Shown: piece after piece, positions 3,478 to 30,271 of the stretch
Layout: every line of letters begins with the position of its first letter
Position numbering within the stretch: position 1 is the stretch's first letter
Assembly (NCBI GenBank): GCA_945905295.1
Contig: CAMDPX010000066.1
Location: 1 to 32,436 of the forward strand
DNA: 32,436 bases
Reading direction: 5' to 3'
Origin: Planctomyces sp. SH-PL62
Lineage (GTDB): Bacteria > Planctomycetota > Planctomycetia > Planctomycetales > Planctomycetaceae
The notes under the pieces: generated by a model
What the model saw: only the letters and a program-made list of their open reading frames with translations
Databases searched by the model: none
Told to the model about the DNA's origin: nothing
Translations under genes and position numbers: made by a program

Positions 3478-3517
3478 ATTGAGACAGGCGAGCGGAGTCA
3501 GCCTTTTGCGCGACGCT

Positions 3518-3592
3518 CATCAGCCGGAACACGCTAGCGTCCGGTTCGCGCAAATCATCGGGAAACCGGACGCTAGCGCGTTCCGGCTGATG
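3518..3592. repeat. Palindromic element between convergent genes
   Basis: Two 29-base arms (3518-3546 and 3564-3592) match as inverted repeats with one mismatch around a 17-base loop. Each arm also contains its own hairpin: CCGGA and TCCGG flank a CGCTAGCG core. It fills the gap between the ends of the aminotransferase and HlyD genes, so it could act as a bidirectional terminator, though no T-run is present. The paired-hairpin plan resembles REP/BIME elements but lacks GTAG ends. Confidence 0.85.
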
Positions 3593-3600
3593 GGCCACGA

Positions 3601-9459: not shown

Positions 9460-9557
9460 GGGGTCGGGTCTACGATTTTTCGGAATTGGCCGGTTACAGT
9501 CTGATGGACACCACAACGGGTCATCGGCCAATTCCGAAAAATCGTAGACCCGACCCC
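9460..9557. repeat. Perfect 33-bp inverted repeat
   Basis: Bases 9460-9492 and 9525-9557 are exact reverse complements around a 32-base spacer. Pairing continues past a bulge, with GAACGAG at 9454-9460 opposite CTCGTTC at 9561-9567. The arms include GGTCGGGTCTACG and TTTTTCGGAATTGGCCG. It lies between the TIGR03009-like gene and the beta-CASP nuclease gene, ending 13 bases before the latter's ribosome site. It may be a MITE-like element, a terminator or an RNA hairpin. Confidence 0.92.
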
Positions 9558-12403: not shown

Positions 12404-12493
12404 CTTCGCACACGGATGCGAGAGGCGCACACGGATGGAGGCAAGGTCAGCGATTCCTCGATCCGTGTGCGCCTCTCGCATCCGTGTGCGAAG
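12404..12493. repeat. Perfect 33-bp inverted repeat between convergent genes
   Basis: Bases 12404-12436 and 12461-12493 are exact reverse complements with a 24-base loop. The arm itself holds two copies of GCACACGGAT. It sits between the ends of the adenylate-kinase-like gene (+) and the PSD1 gene (-), whose stop codon is only 8 bases away, so it could terminate transcription from both sides. No T-run is evident. Confidence 0.93.
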
Positions 12494-12501
12494 TCCCCAT
12501 C

Positions 12502-15474
12502 TCAATCGAGAAATCGAAAGTCCACGCTCGCGAAGAGCGCCTGGAAGAGTCGTTCCCAAGCGATCGGGCTGGGAGTCGTGTTCTCCGCGCTGGGTGCGAC
12601 GATTCGCAGCGCGAAGACGCGTTCGCGTGGAGTTGGTTCACGGCCGACGGTCGTGCGGTAGGCGGCGATGACACGTTGCTCGTCGGTCAGGTCCGGCTGA
12701 GAAAGCAGTTCACGAGCGGCTTCGCGCGATTGATCCAGCACGAACGGCGAGTTCATCAGGTACAGCGCCTGAGTCGGCACCGTCGTGACGTTGCGGCGGC
12801 CGATCGACAAATTCGGGTCGGCGAAATCGAACGCCTCGAAGAGTTCCAGTAACCGATTCCGCAGGATAGGCGTGTAGACGCTGCGGCGCGTTTCGTCGAA
12901 GACGTAGGTCATCTCGCCGATGTTGGCGTTCGGGCCGTCTTGCTTGGGATTGCGCAGCGTGCGGCCGAACATCGTGCGCTCGAGCGAATCGCTGGTCAGC
13001 AGCATCGCATCGCGAATCGCCTCGGCCGAATGCCGGCGACGGTTTTGTCGCCAGAGCAGCCGGTTTTCAGGATCGGCTGACATTTGAGATTTGAAATCTG
13101 AAATTTGAGATTTGAGATTTGAACTCTCCGTCTGACTCGCCAGCCCATACGTCCGCGACAACACGATCTCGCGCACCAGCAATTTCACGGACCAGGCGTC
13201 GCTCATTAACCGCGTGGCGAGATGATCGAGCAATTCCGGGTGCGACGGCGTCTCACCGGTTGAGCCGAAATTGTCCACGGTGCGGACCAGGCCGACGCCG
13301 AACAGATGATGCCAAACGCGATTGGCCAGCACGCGGGCGGTTAGCGGGTTTGTCGAACTGGTCATCCACGCGGCTAGCTCGCGACGACCGCTTTCTTTCG
13401 GAGAGGGCAGGGCGGGGGAGCCGTAGGTGGCGACTTGTAAGAAGCCGCGCGGAACCTTGTCTCCCTTCGAGTGGACGTTGCCTCGAATGCGGATCTGAGT
13501 CTCTTCGATCTGCTTGGCCTCTTCGAGCGACATCGCCATCGGACGGTACGGGGCACGCTCGTTGAGTTCTTTGAGTTGCTTTTCGAGGTCTTTGAGGTCG
13601 GCGAGTTTGAGGCGAGCGGGGGGCGTCAGCCCCCCGGTCTGTTTAGATACCGCTCGCGAGGGACCGGGGGGCTGACGCCCCCCGCTCGCCTGAGCCGTCT
13701 CGACCGGCAGCAGTTGCAACGCATCGACGATGACGTGGCCATCGGTCCCTTCGTTGCTGATGAGGACATACCACTGGCCGGACTCGTCGAAGCGGTATTT
13801 CCCCAGCGACACAAAACGATGGTCGATCGGCGGCGAAGTGCGCTGATTGATCTTGAGATCGTGTTCGCCATCGAGATCCAGAATCTCGATCGGCACATTG
13901 GTCGCGCGGCTGTCGCCGGCGTTGTAGGCCAAGCGGACTTCATAGAGGCCGGCCTTCGGGACGGTCGGGCTGAACGTCAGCGTCTTTTGGCCTTTGTCTT
14001 TGTTGCCATCGTGCGAGTAGCCGTCGCCGATGTAGTGCTTGCTGAATTGCGAGTGCGTCCACTCGCCCACCTTCTTGGCGTCTGAGTCATCGACGACGAT
14101 GCCGGCGAATGCCTTGAGTTCAATCGGACCGCGCGGTGTGCCGGGCATGTCGTCGTCATCGTCGCCCACGTTCTTTTGGGCCGACGCGAGCCGTTTCTCT
14201 TCCGCCTTCACGGCGTCGATCTGCTTTTTGAGATCCGCGACTGCCAGTTCGTGTTGTTTGACCGAAGCAGCCAATTCAGCCGACATCGGGAGCGGGCGTT
14301 CGATCCACTTCGAGACGTTGTCGTGATCCAGCAAGTGCGTGCTGCGGAAGATGCCGGCCAGCGCGTAGTAGTCGCGCTGCGGGATCGGATCGAACTTGTG
14401 GTCATGGCAGCGAGCACAACCGATGGTCATGCCGAGCACCGCTTTGCCCAGCGTGTCGATTTGCTCGTCCACGACATCGAATTCGAGAGCCTGCTTGTCT
14501 TGCTCTTCGTAGTTCGTGGGACCGAGCGAAAGCAGCGCCGTCGCGACGATCAGTTCTTCTTGTTGTTGCGGAGAATTGAACGGGAGCAGATCGCCCGCGA
14601 GTTGTTCCAGCAGGAATCGGTCGAACGGCTTGTCGTTGTTGAACGAGCGGATCACGTAATCGCGATACCGCCACGCTTCGGCCAAGATCATGGATCGACC
14701 ACCGCCGCTCGATTCCGCGAAGCGTGCGATGTCGAGCCAATGCCGGCCCCAACGCTCGCCGAAGTGCGGCGAGGCCAGCAGTCGATCCACGACTTGCTCG
14801 CGCGCATCAGGCGAAGAATCCAAAACGAAGTCATCGATCTCGGCAGGAGTCGGCGGCAGGCCGATCAAGTCGAAGGTGACGCGCCGCAGCCACGTCGCGC
14901 GATCGGCGTCGCCGATTGGTCGAATGCCGACGGACTCTTGCTTCGCGAGAATGAAGCGGTCGATGTCAGCGCTGGGCCAAGACGGATCTTTCACGGCTGG
15001 GATCGCCGGCTGTGCGATAGGCCGGAAGCACCAGAATTGCTGGCCGGCAGCGATGTCGATCTCGCGCCGAGCCAATGCTTTTGCGGGAGCGGTGCGCGGG
15101 TCGGGAGCACCTTGCTCAATCCACTTCGCGAAGTCGGCGATGACTTCGTCGGGCAGCTTCCCTTTAAGGGGCATCTCCATGCCGTCTTCATGCTTCAACG
15201 CTTTGATAAGCAGACTGTCGTTGGGCTTGCTGGGCAGCAACGCCGGCCCCGAATCGCCGCCTCGTTTCCAACCATCGCGGCTGTCGAGCAGCAGCCCCCC
15301 CTTCACGGCTTTCGCCTCGGCCGAGTGGCATTCATAGCAATGCTGGACGAGGACCGGTCGGATCTTCTTCTCGAAGAATTCGATGCCCGTCGGTTCGTCG
15401 GCGGCCAAGACAATGGTGGGGAGCAGGCCCAACGCAAGAGAGGCCCAGCAGAGGATTCGATTCCGCATCGTCAT
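12502..15474 (-). CDS. PSCyt1/DUF1549/DUF1553 (PSD1) planctomycete cytochrome-like protein
   Basis: A 990-residue exported protein. A signal peptide (RILCWASLALGLLPTIVLA) precedes a PSCyt1 haem-binding-like domain with C46-Y-E-C49-H50. DUF1549 follows (DIDRFILAKQE, ATWLRRVTFDLIGLPP, FGERWGRHWLDIARFAES) with a second CxxCH in GCARCHDHKFDPI near residue 354. Residues about 450-592 resemble a golvesin-like beta-sandwich (GEWTHSQF, GYSHDGNKDKGQK, TNVPIEI, EGTDGHVIVDALQ). The C-terminal third is DUF1553 (LAAWMTSSTNPLTARVLANR, RNVTTVPTQALYLMNSPF). Function is unproven; members are thought to act in the periplasm and usually pair with DUF1501 proteins. Two repeat insertions are translated in it, near residues 595-621 and 783-798. 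ATGs at 15474 or 15468 are equally plausible; no ribosome site decides. Confidence 0.88.
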   Translation of the reverse strand: MTMRNRILCWASLALGLLPTIVLAADEPTGIEFFEKKIRPVLVQHCYECHSAEAKAVKGGLLLDSRDGWKRGGDSGPALLPSKPNDSLLIKALKHEDGMEMPLKGKLPDEVIADFAKWIEQGAPDPRTAPAKALARREIDIAAGQQFWCFRPIAQPAIPAVKDPSWPSADIDRFILAKQESVGIRPIGDADRATWLRRVTFDLIGLPPTPAEIDDFVLDSSPDAREQVVDRLLASPHFGERWGRHWLDIARFAESSGGGRSMILAEAWRYRDYVIRSFNNDKPFDRFLLEQLAGDLLPFNSPQQQEELIVATALLSLGPTNYEEQDKQALEFDVVDEQIDTLGKAVLGMTIGCARCHDHKFDPIPQRDYYALAGIFRSTHLLDHDNVSKWIERPLPMSAELAASVKQHELAVADLKKQIDAVKAEEKRLASAQKNVGDDDDDMPGTPRGPIELKAFAGIVVDDSDAKKVGEWTHSQFSKHYIGDGYSHDGNKDKGQKTLTFSPTVPKAGLYEVRLAYNAGDSRATNVPIEILDLDGEHDLKINQRTSPPIDHRFVSLGKYRFDESGQWYVLISNEGTDGHVIVDALQLLPVETAQASGGRQPPGPSRAVSKQTGGLTPPARLKLADLKDLEKQLKELNERAPYRPMAMSLEEAKQIEETQIRIRGNVHSKGDKVPRGFLQVATYGSPALPSPKESGRRELAAWMTSSTNPLTARVLANRVWHHLFGVGLVRTVDNFGSTGETPSHPELLDHLATRLMSDAWSVKLLVREIVLSRTYGLASQTESSNLKSQISDFKSQMSADPENRLLWRQNRRRHSAEAIRDAMLLTSDSLERTMFGRTLRNPKQDGPNANIGEMTYVFDETRRSVYTPILRNRLLELFEAFDFADPNLSIGRRNVTTVPTQALYLMNSPFVLDQSREAARELLSQPDLTDEQRVIAAYRTTVGREPTPRERVFALRIVAPSAENTTPSPIAWERLFQALFASVDFRFLD
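13082..13125. repeat. AT-rich short-repeat tract inside the PSD1 gene
   Basis: A tract built of GATTTGA/AAATCTG-type 7-9 base units, much richer in A+T than the surrounding gene. On the coding strand it is read in frame as SSNLKSQISDFKSQM. It closely resembles the longer tract inside the methionyl-tRNA synthetase gene at 28961-29072. Confidence 0.8.
13610..13691. repeat. Palindromic element translated within the PSD1 gene
   Basis: Two perfect 30-base arms (13610-13639 and 13662-13691) face each other across 22 bases. Each arm folds by itself: GGGGGGC-GTCA-GCCCCCC on the left and the mirror form on the right. Read in frame it adds ASGGRQPPGPSR and TGGLTPPAR between the golvesin-like and DUF1553 parts of the protein. 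It is a REP-pair-like element without GTAG ends. Confidence 0.9.
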
Positions 15475-15606
15475 GAGAGTGTCACCGGCGTAAGAGTTCG
15501 GAAGCGGTCGCATGATAGCGGACCAGCGGAGCGGATTTCACGGATCATTCCTGGAACGCCGCGGACTCGCTTCGCCGCCGGCGAGTTTGTGGGATATACC
15601 ACTCAC

Positions 15607-18698: not shown

Positions 18699-21600
18699 AT
18701 GTTGCTGGCAACGAAACTGACTGACTGGCTTGGGCTTTCCGGATCGGGGCGATCGCGTCGCCAGACGCGCGGGACGCGAGTCGCTCGGTCGGAAATGCTT
18801 GAGGATCGACGGCTGCTGTCGGCGGAATACTTCGTGGCGAACTCCGGCGACGATTGGGGAACCGGGGCGGTCGGCGATCCCTTCAAGACGATCCGCCGAG
18901 CACTCGATGCGGCCGAGGCCGGTGACACGATCACGCTGCGGAACGGCGTCTTCGAAGGCGGCTTCCAGATCGACATCGACAACCTGACGCTGCGGTCGAT
19001 GCCCGGCGAGTGGGCCGTCATCGAATCGCCATTGACGCAGCTCACCGACGGGCGACAGAACTCGGTCATCCGCTACAGCTACGACGTCGAAGGCGGGCGG
19101 TTGGAGAATCTCGAAATCACCGGCGGCTATTACTACGGCGTCATGTTCTGGGACTGGTGGGACTTCCCCTCGTTCGGTCCGGAGAGCACGCACGTCGGTG
19201 CGAGCGGCGTGACTCTGGATCATGTCAAAGTGCATGACACGGGCGTGGACGGCATCAAGATCACTCCGGCGGCGAACGACATCACGATCCTCAACAGCGA
19301 GATCTACAACACCGGCCGCCGCACGACCGCCAGCGCCGATGGCATCGACAACAACAACGGCGATCGGATGATCGCTCGCGGTAACTACATTCACGACGTG
19401 CCGGGCATCGGCATCCTGACGTCCGGCGGCACCGAGGATTCGCTGATCGAGCAGAACTTCATCGAAGAGACTGGCGGAGCCGGCATCGTCAACGGCTTCT
19501 ACACCGAGATGGAATGGATCGAACCGGACGCGAACCCCGGTCACTTCGCCAGCATCGACACCGTCGTCCGCAACAACATCGTCGTCAATGCGGGGCAGGC
19601 GGGAGTCGGCATCTACGGCGCGCTCAACGCTCAAGTTTACAACAACACGCTGGTCAACGCGGCAGATGATGCTCAGGCGCCGATTCAGTTCGGCGGCTAC
19701 GACATGTGGGTCTCGAACACGGCTCCGCACTACGAGCACATCGCGTCGGTCAATCCGAGCGTCCTCAACAACATCATCGTCACCAACCCGGAGAACCTGA
19801 CGCGGATGGTCGATATCCGCGAAGGCTCGATCACCGGCCCGCTGACGCTGGACTACAACCAGTACTACGGCACGAGCACTCGCGGCGTGCTGTTCATCGA
19901 CCGCAACCTCACCGGTGACGGCACGCCGGAGCAAACGCTGTCGCAGTGGCAGCAGAACTACGGCTACGACACGCACAGCTTCATCGCCGACCCGCAGTTC
20001 GATGCGAGTTGGCATCTGACCGCGAACAGCCCGGCGATTGCGCTGGCGGGATTGACGAATGATTTCGACGGCAATCCAAGAGTAGCTGAAGACGTGAGTC
20101 TTCAGTCGAACGGTCTGAACTCTCACGAGTTCAGCTACGACCTCGGTGCCGACGAATTCAATGCCGGTGCGAATCGCACGTTGCCTCCCGCTCCGTTCGG
20201 AGCACCGTCCATCGAGATCGCCGAACGTGGCTACCACGACTACGAAGCGAACACCATCAACGTGAAAGTCGTTCGGCACGGCTCGGCCAACGATACGGTG
20301 ACGGTGCAGTATCAAACACTCAACGGCAGCGCCGTCGGTCAGCCCCCTCAGGCGGATCCACCTGGAGTGCATACGGCCGATCCTCCTGGCGTCATTACGT
20401 CTGACTTCGTTCACGTCGCAGGAACGCTGACGTTCGCTCCGGGCGAGATCGAGAAGATCGTCGCCGTTCAACTCCTCGGCGACGATATTGCCGAAGGGGA
20501 CGAGCATTTCCTCTTCACGCTCAGCAACCCGACGACCGACGGCTCGTATCCGGTACGGCTCGGCCATCAATCAACGGCCAGCATGACGATCGACGACGAG
20601 GACACGCCGATCACGCTGCACTACGCCACGAAGTTCGTCAGCGGCGACGGGAGCGACGTGACTGGCGACGGCAGCGAGGCGCATCCGTGGCACTCGCTGC
20701 AACACGCGGCGGACAACGTCGGCCCCGGCGATTACGTTATCGTCCAGCCCGGCAAGTACTGGGGCTTCAATCTGACAACCGACGGCAAACCGGATGCGCG
20801 AATCACGTTTCACGCCATGCCCGGTGTCGAGATCGACGAGGCATTCCCCGGCCAGCAGGACGGCATCAATCTTGAAGGAGCTGATTTCGTCACCATCGAA
20901 GGCTTCTACGTCCACGACATGCCGCGAGCCGGTCTCCGTTCGGTCAACAACGACGGCGTCATCCTGCGAGGCAATCACACCGACCACAACACGATGTGGG
21001 GCATCCTCACCGGCTGGTCGGAAAACATCCTCGCCGAGAACAACGTCGCCTCGCGGTCGCAGGTCGAGCACGGCATCTACATCAGCAACTCGGCCGACGG
21101 TGCGATCGTGCGCAACAACGTCGTCTGGGGTAACAACGACAGCGGCATACAGTTCAACGCCGACCGCTACTTGCCGGGCGATGGCGTTCACTCGAACAAC
21201 CTCGTCGAAGGGAACGTCATCTTCGAAAACGGTCGCGGCGGCGGTGCCGCGTTGAACTTCGACGGCGTGCAGGACAGCGTCATCCAGAACAACCTGCTCT
21301 ACAACAACCACTCGACGGGCATCGTGCTTTACGTCGGGTTCGCGGCGGATTCGTCGACGAACAATCTCATCACAAATAACACGGTGGTGATGGCCGAGGA
21401 TGCTCGCTGGGCACTGCTGATGACCGACGGCAGCAGCGGCAACGTGGTGACCAACAACGTCCTGCTCAACAAGAACCCGAACCGCGGCTCGATGACCGTC
21501 GAGCACAACAGCCTGCCGGCTCTGTCCGATCACAACATCGTCGAAGACCTGTTCCAGATGGACGGCACAAACGGCAGCTTCGCCGCGTGGCAGAGCTTCT

Positions 21601-24215
21601 CCGGCGGAATGGACACGCACTCGATCGTCATCGGTGAGGGTGATCCGCCGGGTGAGCACGTCCAAGGCGATCCGCCGGGAGTGCTTGTCGAAGGCGACCC
21701 GCCGGGTGAATTCGACAGCCTGTTCGTCAATCCGGCCGCGAACGATTACCGCCTCAAGTCCGGCAGCTTGGCGATTGACGTCGGCGATCCGACGGGTGCT
21801 CCGGCGACAGACATCTTCGGTCACGCACGATCAGCCGGTGCCGGGATCGACATCGGAGCCTACGAATACGGCGAACTGGTCCCCGCCGTAAACGTGCAAT
21901 TCGAGTGGTCCAACGTCGTCGGCTACGAGTTCATCGGCATGGCGGAAGTCGCGGTGACTCGCATCGGCGACACCGAGGGAGCATTAGCCGTCGAGATCAG
22001 TCATTCACCCGGCTCAGCCGACAGCGACGACTACCGGGCGACTCGTGGCTATCTCGTCTTCCAACCGGGTGAGATGCGAAAGACCTTCCGAGTCTTCGTG
22101 AACGACGACGCCATGATCGAGCAGAACGAGACGGTGAATCTTGAGCTCAGGATCGTGGGTGATCCAACCGGCCTCTTCCCGACCGATCAAGTTGGCGATC
22201 CAACCGGACTGATTCCTGTAGCTTGGGACTCTGTCCCGAGTGGAGCGGCGGGAACAGAGGTCGGGACAGAGTCCCAACCTACGGTAATGCCGACGGATCA
22301 AGCCACGCTGCACATCATCAGCGACGACGCTTGGAAGCCGGGAACATTTCAATTCGATGCCAAGAGCGTCACGTTCAACGAGACCGACGGCACCGCGACC
22401 GTCACCGTCCACCGAGTCGGCGGCAGCAGCGGCGAGGTCAGTCTGAACTTCACAACCGACACCTTCTCGCCGCCGCGACAAGCGACCTGGATCAAGAAGC
22501 ACACCGAACTGCTCTATCCAACCGACCGCGACACTCCCGCTGTAGGACGGTCGCCCTCGGCCGTCCCGGATGAGGACGACGGTTCGGACGGCCGAGGGCG
22601 GCCATCCTACGACTTTCATCACGTCGCTGGTTTGCTGGACTTCGCCCACGGCGAGATGTCCAAGACCATCACCGTCCCGCTGATCAATGACGACTGGTAC
22701 GAAGGGGGCGAAGCGTTCGTGCTGAAGCTCAGCGAGCCAACCAACGGCGGGACGCTCGGTTCGCAAAGCGAGATCAAGGTCCGCATCGAGAGCGAGGACG
22801 TGAAACTTCCCGGCACTTTCGTGTTCGCGAGCGCTGCGTACTCGGTCGTCGAAGGGACGCCGTTCGTACACGTGACCGTCAACCGCATCAATGGCGGCAA
22901 CGTCGAGGCCAGTGTCCGTCTCTACGACACCGGAGCCGGCAACGGTTCGACAACCGCATCGGCTTGGGCACCGTCCGATTACAACGGCGTTCCAGCGATG
23001 CTGACGTTCGCTCCGGGTGAACTGTCCAAGACGATCAGCATCCCGATCGTCGATGACAGCAACACCGAGATCGACGAAGTCTTCTCGCTGCGATTCTACA
23101 GCCCGACCAACGACGCAACTGTCGGCAGCCCGGACACGACCTTCGTCACGATCCAAGACAACGAATCAACGTTCTACTTCCGAGGCGCGACACCTTCGAC
23201 CTACTCGTTCGAGTCGGTTGAAGGGACCGGCAAGATGCCGATTACTGTCGTGCGACAAGGCTCGCTGGTGCCCCCCGCGTCGGTAACGATTCGCACTAGC
23301 GACGGCTCGGCAGTCGGCGGTGTCGATTACACGCCAACCACCGTCACGCTCAACTTCGCCGCCGGTGAAGCGAGCAAGTCGTTCGACGTCCCCGTCACGA
23401 ACGACACGCTGATGGAAGCGAAGGAGAGCTTCTACGTCAGCATGTCGAACGTCGTCGGTGCTCAGCAGGGAAGCTGGAGTTGGTCGAGCTACATCGTCGA
23501 CGACGACGTAGCCGCGACTCCTGGCAAGTTCGAGTTCTCCGCCGCGACGTACTCGGTCGCCGAGAACGGCGGATCGCTCAACGTGACGATCACACGAGTC
23601 GGCGGCAGCGCCGGCACGGTGACGGTCCAATACCGCACGCTCGACGGAGCGACCGGCCAACCGTCCGATCAAATCGCCTATGCCGGCAGCGACTACTCGT
23701 CGAAGAGCGGCACGGTGACGTTCGCCCCAGGCGAGACCACGAAAACCATCAGCATCCCGATCACGAACGACAGCCGCATCGAGAAAAACGAGTTCTTCAC
23801 CCTCGAACTCCGCAACCCTGCCGGCGGTGCAGCGCTCGGCACCGTCGCCAAAGCGGTCGTCACGATTGTCGAAGACGACAGCGCCATCGAGTTCGGCACG
23901 AGCAACTACGTCGTCAACGAGAGCGCCGGCTACATCACGATCACGCTGATCCGCAAAGGAAGCACAGCCGGCAGCGCGACCGTCGATCTCAACATCAGCA
24001 GCGGCTCGGCGGAAGCAGGTAAAGATTTCATAAAGCCGGCCACTCCCACCGTGACCTTTGCCGACGGCGAGTCCACGAAGACGGTCCAGATCCAACTGAT
24101 CGACGACGTCTTCAAAGAAGCCGACGAGACGTTCTATCTCAGCCTGAGCAACGCCGTCGGAGCCAAGCTCGGCAGCTACCTCTACGGCAACGTGAAGATT
24201 CTGGCGAATGACTGA
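18699..24215 (+). CDS. Giant LEPR-XLL surface protein with two beta-helix regions and about seven Calx-beta domains
   Basis: An 1838-residue protein. The basic N-terminus ends in LEDRRLLSA (residues 34-42), the LEPR-XLL-type motif found at the start of many very large planctomycete proteins. Residues about 43-480 form a right-handed parallel beta-helix (NSGDDWGTGAVGDPFKTIRRAL, repeated NN-x-I turns). A Calx-beta domain follows (505-630), then a second beta-helix (645-1060, GSEAHPWHSLQHAADNVGPGD), then six more Calx-beta domains (about 1064, 1214, 1373, 1492, 1609 and 1729 to the end), each with FAPGE/FADGE and a closing DD pair. Calx-beta domains bind calcium; beta-helices often bind or cleave polysaccharide. 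A secreted, adhesive role is inferred. AAGGGGAG lies 7 nt before the ATG. Three GTAG-type palindromes and three short tandem repeats are translated in its loops. Confidence 0.9.
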   Translation: MLLATKLTDWLGLSGSGRSRRQTRGTRVARSEMLEDRRLLSAEYFVANSGDDWGTGAVGDPFKTIRRALDAAEAGDTITLRNGVFEGGFQIDIDNLTLRSMPGEWAVIESPLTQLTDGRQNSVIRYSYDVEGGRLENLEITGGYYYGVMFWDWWDFPSFGPESTHVGASGVTLDHVKVHDTGVDGIKITPAANDITILNSEIYNTGRRTTASADGIDNNNGDRMIARGNYIHDVPGIGILTSGGTEDSLIEQNFIEETGGAGIVNGFYTEMEWIEPDANPGHFASIDTVVRNNIVVNAGQAGVGIYGALNAQVYNNTLVNAADDAQAPIQFGGYDMWVSNTAPHYEHIASVNPSVLNNIIVTNPENLTRMVDIREGSITGPLTLDYNQYYGTSTRGVLFIDRNLTGDGTPEQTLSQWQQNYGYDTHSFIADPQFDASWHLTANSPAIALAGLTNDFDGNPRVAEDVSLQSNGLNSHEFSYDLGADEFNAGANRTLPPAPFGAPSIEIAERGYHDYEANTINVKVVRHGSANDTVTVQYQTLNGSAVGQPPQADPPGVHTADPPGVITSDFVHVAGTLTFAPGEIEKIVAVQLLGDDIAEGDEHFLFTLSNPTTDGSYPVRLGHQSTASMTIDDEDTPITLHYATKFVSGDGSDVTGDGSEAHPWHSLQHAADNVGPGDYVIVQPGKYWGFNLTTDGKPDARITFHAMPGVEIDEAFPGQQDGINLEGADFVTIEGFYVHDMPRAGLRSVNNDGVILRGNHTDHNTMWGILTGWSENILAENNVASRSQVEHGIYISNSADGAIVRNNVVWGNNDSGIQFNADRYLPGDGVHSNNLVEGNVIFENGRGGGAALNFDGVQDSVIQNNLLYNNHSTGIVLYVGFAADSSTNNLITNNTVVMAEDARWALLMTDGSSGNVVTNNVLLNKNPNRGSMTVEHNSLPALSDHNIVEDLFQMDGTNGSFAAWQSFSGGMDTHSIVIGEGDPPGEHVQGDPPGVLVEGDPPGEFDSLFVNPAANDYRLKSGSLAIDVGDPTGAPATDIFGHARSAGAGIDIGAYEYGELVPAVNVQFEWSNVVGYEFIGMAEVAVTRIGDTEGALAVEISHSPGSADSDDYRATRGYLVFQPGEMRKTFRVFVNDDAMIEQNETVNLELRIVGDPTGLFPTDQVGDPTGLIPVAWDSVPSGAAGTEVGTESQPTVMPTDQATLHIISDDAWKPGTFQFDAKSVTFNETDGTATVTVHRVGGSSGEVSLNFTTDTFSPPRQATWIKKHTELLYPTDRDTPAVGRSPSAVPDEDDGSDGRGRPSYDFHHVAGLLDFAHGEMSKTITVPLINDDWYEGGEAFVLKLSEPTNGGTLGSQSEIKVRIESEDVKLPGTFVFASAAYSVVEGTPFVHVTVNRINGGNVEASVRLYDTGAGNGSTTASAWAPSDYNGVPAMLTFAPGELSKTISIPIVDDSNTEIDEVFSLRFYSPTNDATVGSPDTTFVTIQDNESTFYFRGATPSTYSFESVEGTGKMPITVVRQGSLVPPASVTIRTSDGSAVGGVDYTPTTVTLNFAAGEASKSFDVPVTNDTLMEAKESFYVSMSNVVGAQQGSWSWSSYIVDDDVAATPGKFEFSAATYSVAENGGSLNVTITRVGGSAGTVTVQYRTLDGATGQPSDQIAYAGSDYSSKSGTVTFAPGETTKTISIPITNDSRIEKNEFFTLELRNPAGGAALGTVAKAVVTIVEDDSAIEFGTSNYVVNESAGYITITLIRKGSTAGSATVDLNISSGSAEAGKDFIKPATPTVTFADGESTKTVQIQLIDDVFKEADETFYLSLSNAVGAKLGSYLYGNVKILAND
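20082..20138. repeat. GTAG-hairpin/hairpin-CTAC element, in frame
   Basis: GTAG at 20082 is followed by a perfect 8-bp hairpin (CTGAAGAC-GTGA-GTCTTCAG), a 9-base spacer, a second 8-bp hairpin (CTGAACTC-TCAC-GAGTTCAG) that partly inverts the first, and CTAC. The 57 bases are exactly 19 codons, begin at a codon boundary, and are read as VAEDVSLQSNGLNSHEFSY between DFDGNPR and DLGADEF of the first beta-helix. Confidence 0.9.
20352..20399 (+). repeat. Two tandem 8-residue DPPG repeats
   Basis: Two tandem 24-base units encode ADPPGVHT and ADPPGVIT in the loop of the first Calx-beta domain, just before SDFVHVAGTLTFAPGE. A related DPPG repeat recurs at 21639. Confidence 0.8.
21639..21719 (+). repeat. 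Three tandem 9-residue GDPPG repeats
   Basis: Three exact 27-base periods encode GDPPGEHVQ, GDPPGVLVE and GDPPGEFDS near the end of the second beta-helix. Codons for GDPPG vary (GAT/GAC, GGT/GGA), so the copies are not brand new. Confidence 0.85.
22155..22217 (+). repeat. Two tandem GDPTG repeats abutting a palindrome
   Basis: A 36-base period encodes VGDPTGLFPTDQ and then VGDPTGLIP, in the loop before the last strand of the second Calx-beta domain. The second copy runs directly into the GTAG element that starts at 22218. Confidence 0.8.
22218..22282. repeat. GTAG-hairpin/hairpin-CTAC element, in frame
   Basis: Arms 22218-22239 and 22261-22282 match as inverted repeats with one mismatch. 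Each holds its own small hairpin (GGGACTCTGTCCC and GGGACAGAGTCCC) next to GTAG or CTAC. It starts at a codon boundary and is read as VAWDSVPSGAAGTEVGTESQP, with its last two bases opening a Thr codon, inside the second Calx-beta domain. Confidence 0.88.
22542..22610. repeat. GTAG-hairpin/hairpin-CTAC element, in frame
   Basis: Arms 22542-22566 and 22586-22610 match at 23 of 25 positions around a 19-base spacer. The left arm folds by GACGG/CCGTC and the right by GGACGG/CCATCC. The 69 bases are exactly 23 codons beginning at a codon boundary, read as VGRSPSAVPDEDDGSDG then RGRPSY, in the loop before DFHHVAGLLDFAHGE of the third Calx-beta domain. Confidence 0.88.

Positions 24216-28108: not shown

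Positions 28109-30271
<2,163 letters not shown>

What the first reader, a model, noticed from the sequence alone, without database searches (positions are those of the whole stretch)
20082..22610. Three palindromic elements translated in the same phase in one giant gene
All three GTAG elements in the 1838-aa gene start at codon position 1 (GTA reads as Val) and span 57, 65 and 69 bases, two being whole numbers of codons and the third one base short. Each sits in a predicted surface loop (between DGNPR and DLGADEF of the beta-helix, or in Calx-beta loops). This parallels Rickettsia palindromic elements, which add peptides to proteins, and suggests insertion of frame-neutral cassettes into tolerant loops.
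Basis: partly seen in the sequence, partly recalled or inferred. Interest (0 to 1): 0.74.

Follow-up and report, generated by a model that had tools for sequence, protein, structure and literature searches.

The report
Mobile DNA hairpins inside protein genes
Short mobile hairpin sequences of a known type (GTAG "REP" pairs) have landed repeatedly inside protein-coding genes of these uncultured Planctomycetes and appear to be translated as extra loops; the elements are of a known kind, but unrelated hairpin families have landed again and again in the same protein loops in different species.

Summary
Elements at 20082-20138, 22218-22282 and 22542-22610 are head-to-head GTAG hairpin pairs (REP/BIME type), open in the frame of an 1838-aa beta-helix/Calx-beta protein. 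The reading is partly right. Orthologues that cover the sites lack E1 and E3; E2 is shared with one species only. So these are insertions into length-variable loops. They are not frame-neutral cassettes with a preferred phase: in 1.63 Mb of the same genome I found 153 such pairs (0 in shuffles), 27 inside genes, with phase 14:13:0 (the zero is the frame that reads TAG) and length mod 3 of 9:8:10. Same phase in one gene is unremarkable; E1 and E3 are open in that frame only. Unrelated hairpin families repeatedly occupy the same loops in different species: two loops of this gene, plus HypF, an SNF2 helicase, DUF6797 and PSD1 proteins; a kinase loop empty in this genome carries three families elsewhere. 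Two REP-transposase-like genes flanked by E2-family REPs are a plausible mobiliser. Intragenic GTAG REP dimers were described in 2013, so this is a new member of a known kind; the loop re-use is the new part. Translation and mobility are inferred.

The parts
18699..24215 (+). Host gene, 1838 aa: probably exported (LEDRRLLSA-type N-terminus), right-handed beta-helix stretches and 7 Calx-beta stretches
   Evidence: ORF; Pfam; translation
20082..20138 (+). E1, head-to-head GTAG hairpin dimer (57 nt), read VAEDVSLQSNGLNSHEFSY, after the first beta-helix
   Evidence: absent in all orthologues that cover the site
20082..20105 (+). E1 left REP GTAGCTGAAGACGTGAGTCTTCAG
   Evidence: sequence; relatives in the same genome at 4 mismatches
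20115..20138 (-). E1 right REP GTAGCTGAACTCGTGAGAGTTCAG
   Evidence: sequence; 20 relatives at 2 mismatches
20334..20357 (+). Decayed single REP (GTCGGTCAGCCCCCTCAGGCGGAT); the same place in G002 has the intact REP GTAGGTCAGCCTTTCCAGGCTGAC and in G010 a dimer of a different family
   Evidence: alignment
22218..22282 (+). E2, head-to-head GTAG dimer (65 nt) of the TTGGGACTCTGTCCC family, read VAWDSVPSGAAGTEVGTESQPT, in a Calx-beta loop
   Evidence: (inverted repeat I24); shared only with G010 (L011); arms changed at 1 of 45 positions, spacer at 6 of 20
22542..22610 (+). E3, head-to-head GTAG dimer (69 nt) of the GGATGGCCGCCCTCGGCCGTCC family, read VGRSPSAVPDEDDGSDGRGRPSY, in a Calx-beta loop
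   Evidence: same family encodes PPSAV..DGRGRPSY in kinases of G008 and G010

Best explanation
The three segments are GTAG-tagged REP dimers (BIME-like units) that inserted as small mobile elements into a gene for a probably exported beta-helix/Calx-beta protein. Likely course: a RAYT-type HUH transposase copies or moves single-stranded REP dimers; most insertions into genes are lost, and those that survive in genes lie in tolerant loops with the downstream frame intact and no stop, so they are translated as about 17-42 extra residues. Shown: element structure, genome-wide family membership, species-specific presence, loop location in alignments, intact frames, RAYT-like genes including two flanked by E2-family REPs. 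Inferred: RAYT mobilisation, translation into protein, and selective neutrality of the peptides.
For: 153 dimers in 1.63 Mb against 0 in shuffles; 27 in genes (18%, against 81% of sequence called coding), phase 14:13:0. Orthologues at about 80-86% DNA identity (L103 68.5%) that cover the sites lack E1 and E3, and all but G010 lack E2. The empty sites are short loops (e.g. TDRDTSATAGADY for E3). G002 and G010 carry other-family REPs at the loop near 20334, and L099 carries a GTAGCCACGTTCGCC dimer at the E2 loop. Of 31 dimers with coding-like flanks on both sides, the 16 not in open frame fit gene boundaries, often with GTAG giving the upstream TAG stop; five of these pairs were scanned and none showed one family split across the two genes. 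Four Y1_Tnp proteins match the REP-associated transposase model best (60-70 bits, below its cut-off of 80); two more, 80% identical to each other, are flanked on both sides by E2-family REPs.
Against: No RNA or protein data, so translation is inferred from open frames. My gene caller is crude and requires open frames, although one search tested flanks without that demand. No RAYT was found next to E1- or E3-family REPs. E1 and E3 stand where relatives have 4-5 other codons rather than being clean additions, so the exact insertion junction is not resolved. The genomes are fragmented (476 contigs here).
Confidence: 0.88

Rival explanations
1. The loops are genuine insertion hot spots or swap sites: an older insert attracts or is replaced by later palindromes, so the loops work as variable cassettes that diversify exported and signalling proteins.
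For: Unrelated families fill the same loop in different species: the 20334 loop and E2 loop of this gene; HypF loop, with a second palindrome nested inside the first in G002; SNF2 loop with three unrelated palindromes in four species; kinase loop between VYDFG and YIVMEF with three GTAG families; DUF6797 loop with two; PSD1 loop with three GTAG families, a heptamer array and a non-GTAG palindrome.
Against: Junctions differ between families, empty orthologues exist (L126, L153, L103), and simple tolerance of loops plus purging elsewhere predicts the same pattern. No sign that peptide change is favoured.
Confidence: 0.2
2. The elements act at RNA or DNA level inside the gene (an mRNA hairpin that slows ribosomes or tunes decay, or a gyrase/supercoiling site); the peptide is a by-product.
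For: Strong hairpins. E2 arms changed at 1 of 45 positions between G000 and G010 while gene-wide divergence is 15% (P about 0.006) and the spacer changed at 6 of 20; in the PSD1 b-family dimer two changes are mirrored on both arms so pairing is kept.
Against: The same arm conservation could come from gene conversion, arm-to-arm repair, or independent recent insertions. Species lacking the elements have the same gene.
Confidence: 0.15
3. The elements are removed or bypassed (spliced, hopped over) and never reach the protein.
For: Strong hairpins within coding sequence resemble known bypass signals in general form only.
Against: All 27 genic copies are stop-free in the host frame, and none is in the frame that would read TAG; neither would be needed if the elements were skipped. 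(The gene caller favours this outcome, but the flank test found no clear exception.)
Confidence: 0.03
4. Ordinary divergent loops that happen to look palindromic.
For: Calx-beta loops vary in length anyway, and some variation is plain DPPG repeats without palindromes.
Against: 0 dimers in shuffled sequence against 153; exact arm copies elsewhere in the genome for the E2 and E3 families.
Confidence: 0.01

Closest known systems
Intragenic GTAG-tagged REPs and REP dimers (Di Nocera, De Gregorio and Rocco 2013, PMC3733652)
   Same: GTAG tag, short hairpin, head-to-head dimers with spacer, several families per genome, some inside genes encoding 20-30 aa, GTAG often supplying a stop codon to the neighbouring gene, families reported in Planctomycetes (R. 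baltica)
   Different: Different genus and hairpin families (not compared letter by letter with their Figure 1); same-loop re-use by unrelated families is seen here in many genes, whereas the paper mentions one such case (recB of two Xanthomonas)
Rickettsia palindromic elements (RPE; as described in PMC3767692 and PMC3733652)
   Same: Palindromic repeats inserted in reading frames without breaking them, in solvent-exposed regions, same family in unrelated proteins
   Different: RPEs are given as 100-150 bp, and RPE-4 and RPE-6 belong to the CGTC-tagged group without a dedicated transposase; here the tag is GTAG and RAYT-like genes are present. PMC3767692 leaves open whether RPE sites are hot spots of different origins or one diverged insertion; here different origins are visible directly
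REPtrons, RAYT/TnpA-REP transposase genes flanked by REPs (PMC2817692, PMC8266576)
   Same: L167 and L168: transposase-like gene with MPNHVH motif between E2-family REPs
   Different: Scores below the curated cut-off of the RAYT model; no activity data

Membership tests
GTAG REP / BIME (head-to-head dimer) | GTAG tetranucleotide at the foot of a short stem-loop | tested here: met
   All six half-elements of E1-E3
GTAG REP / BIME (head-to-head dimer) | Many copies in the genome | tested here: met
   153 dimers in 1.63 Mb, 0 in shuffles; the E2 family has at least 41 half-elements within 2 mismatches, the E3 family few
GTAG REP / BIME (head-to-head dimer) | Mostly outside genes, mainly between co-directional or convergent genes | tested here: met
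   61 co-directional, 15 convergent, 4 divergent, 16 genic, 6 edge with the first detector
GTAG REP / BIME (head-to-head dimer) | RAYT gene flanked by cognate REPs in the genome | tested here: inconclusive
   L167 and L168 fit for the E2 family but score below the RAYT model's cut-off; none found for E1 and E3 families
GTAG REP / BIME (head-to-head dimer) | Cleavage and transfer by the cognate TnpA-REP | not testable with these tools
   Needs biochemistry
Rickettsia palindromic elements | Insertion in open frames, same family in unrelated proteins | tested here: met
   E3-family peptide also in kinases; E2-family peptide VGWDSVPT..VGTESQPT in several genes
Rickettsia palindromic elements | CGTC tag (RPE-4, RPE-6) | tested here: not met
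   Tag is GTAG in all three
Rickettsia palindromic elements | Length 100-150 bp | tested here: not met
   57, 65 and 69 nt

The most novel reading that the evidence does not exclude
Certain protein loops are true hot spots where hairpin elements of different families replace or land in one another, so the loops act as exchangeable cassettes that diversify exported and regulatory proteins between species.
Probability: 0.15. Interest if true: 0.7.

Novelty: new member of a known kind. Interest (0 to 1): 0.48.

Why it matters
It shows, in environmental Planctomycetes, that small mobile hairpins can add peptides to conserved enzymes (HypF, SNF2 helicase, Ser/Thr kinase) as well as to a large exported protein, and that unrelated hairpins converge on the same loops. 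That bears on a question left open for Rickettsia in PMC3767692 (hot spots of different origins, or one diverged insertion). It also gives natural insertion maps of loops that tolerate foreign peptides.

Tried and rejected
Preferred phase and frame-neutral length: rejected by genome-wide counts. Broken genes around the dimers: candidates from the unbiased flank test look like gene boundaries; five pairs were checked by Pfam. Structure of the E1 region: model too poor to use. A search for REPs within about 1.5 kb of the best Y1_Tnp hits found copies at only two of eight; a wider look at weaker hits gave the E2-family pair. The Genome Research paper of Ogata on Rickettsia palindromes is not held. 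My first hairpin detector missed the E2 and E3 families; the second, based on arm-to-arm matching, recovers them.

Full report
Setting. The window is contig C66 of an 8.6-Mb, 476-contig genome. The related records found by sequence are mostly titled as uncultured Planctomycetes. The gene in question, 18699-24215 (+), encodes an 1838-aa protein with beta-helix and seven Calx-beta stretches.

Observation. The three elements are as described, at 20082-20138, 22218-22282 and 22542-22610. Each is two inverted GTAG-tagged hairpins with a short spacer. This is the head-to-head dimer of GTAG REPs defined in PMC3733652.

Are they real repeats? In 81 stretches of the same genome (1.63 Mb) two detectors together found 153 such dimers, against 0 in Markov-shuffled copies. 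E2-family half-elements number at least 41 within two mismatches, ten of them exact; the E3 right arm has three exact copies; E1 is a sub-variant of an abundant family.

Are they insertions? Five congeneric genomes hold all or part of the gene, and two more records come from the genome collection (L099 and L103). In the alignment (DNA identity to the window copy mostly 80-86%, L103 68.5%, one G005 fragment 76.5%) E1 and E3 are absent from every orthologue that covers the site, and E2 is present only in G010. The sites are not always clean additions: E1 and E3 stand where relatives have 4-5 other codons. Other orthologues carry other hairpins: G002 an intact single REP and G010 an E2-family dimer at the loop at 20334 (G000 keeps a decayed REP there), and L099 a dimer of a third family at the E2 loop. 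G003 has two further palindromic inserts elsewhere in the gene. So this gene alone shows at least six separate GTAG acquisitions, counting shared copies as one event each.

Phase and frame. Of the 153 dimers 27 lie at least 60 nt inside a called gene. Phase is 14 (GTA as a codon), 13 (xGT AGx) and 0 (TAG in frame); length mod 3 is 9:8:10. Three in one phase in one gene is thus unremarkable, the more so as E1 and E3 have stops in both other frames. Genic dimers are fewer than the coding share would give (18% against 81%), as expected if most genic insertions are lost. In a test that did not require open frames, 31 dimers had coding-like flanks on the same strand; 15 were open in frame and 16 were not. 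The latter fit gene boundaries, often with GTAG giving the upstream TAG stop, and five pairs scanned against Pfam showed no family split between the two sides.

Other genes. The genic dimers hit recognisable proteins: PSCyt/PSD1 proteins, HypF, an SNF2 helicase, a Ser/Thr kinase, a DUF6797 protein and others. Orthologues were fetched for five. HypF: the orthologue in G008 is empty; HypF paralogues at about 38% identity in G010 and G002 have another family in the same loop, in G002 with a second palindrome inside it. SNF2: GTAG dimer in G000, one non-GTAG palindrome in G002 and G003, another in G010, same loop. Kinase: a dimer in one loop of G000 only; another loop, empty in G000, holds three different GTAG families in relatives, one being the E3 family with nearly the same peptide. 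DUF6797: two families, and empty in G005. PSD1: three GTAG families, a heptamer array and a non-GTAG palindrome across orthologues. Of nine loops that carry, or carried, an element in G000 and were compared, six hold a different repeat in at least one relative. A rough hand estimate from the density of genic dimers (27 per about 440,000 codons) and a 20-codon window in five relatives gives under 1% expected per loop; this estimate is an inference, not a tool result, and the loops were not a random sample.

Mechanism. The genome has 13 Y1_Tnp matches. Four of the eight best resemble the REP-associated transposase model (60-70 bits, below its cut-off of 80). Two weaker matches, on C225 and C147, encode 271-aa proteins 80% identical to each other, with the MPNHVH motif, flanked on both sides by E2-family REPs. 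PMC8266576 shows that TnpA-REP enzymes cleave single-stranded REP DNA and depend on the GTAG motif. I infer that RAYT-like enzymes move these dimers. The base before GTAG is C in 53% of all dimer ends and 81% of genic ends, against 30% background, which may reflect target choice.

Where in the protein. A model of the region with E2 and E3 (mean pLDDT 59) puts both in segments below pLDDT 50 between beta strands. The model of the E1 region was too poor to use.

Selection on the inserts. Between G000 and G010 the E2 arms changed at 1 of 45 positions while the spacer changed at 6 of 20 and the gene at 15%. In the PSD1 b-family dimer two changes are mirrored on both arms. This may mean constraint on the hairpin, arm-to-arm repair or separate recent insertions; two cases do not decide.

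Verdict. The elements are GTAG REP dimers inserted in tolerant loops and most likely translated. Genic GTAG dimers are known (PMC3733652, including one same-site case in recB), so the kind is known. The repeated use of the same loops by unrelated families is the part worth following.

Noticed in passing
window 28943-29096 (gene 28109-30271): The gene encodes methionyl-tRNA synthetase and carries an array of 7-nt repeats that reads as a 7-residue repeat (SNLKSES...) in the catalytic region; four congeners lack it and G002 has only a short version.
   Followed up: partly
window 13072-13127 and 13610-13691 (gene 12502-15513, minus strand): The PSCyt/PSD1 gene holds the same heptamer repeat in a loop where paralogue L042 has a GTAG dimer, and an 82-nt non-GTAG palindrome after the Golvesin domain.
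   Followed up: partly
window 20355-20400 and 21638-21710: Short DPPG repeats in loops of the giant gene, variable in number among orthologues and not palindromic; in one loop they follow a decayed REP.
   Followed up: partly
window 3515-3595, 9460-9557, 12404-12493: Long non-GTAG inverted repeats (32-38 nt arms) between genes; similar GCTAGCG-type palindromes occur inside HypF and SNF2 genes of relatives.
   Followed up: no
   Followed up: no
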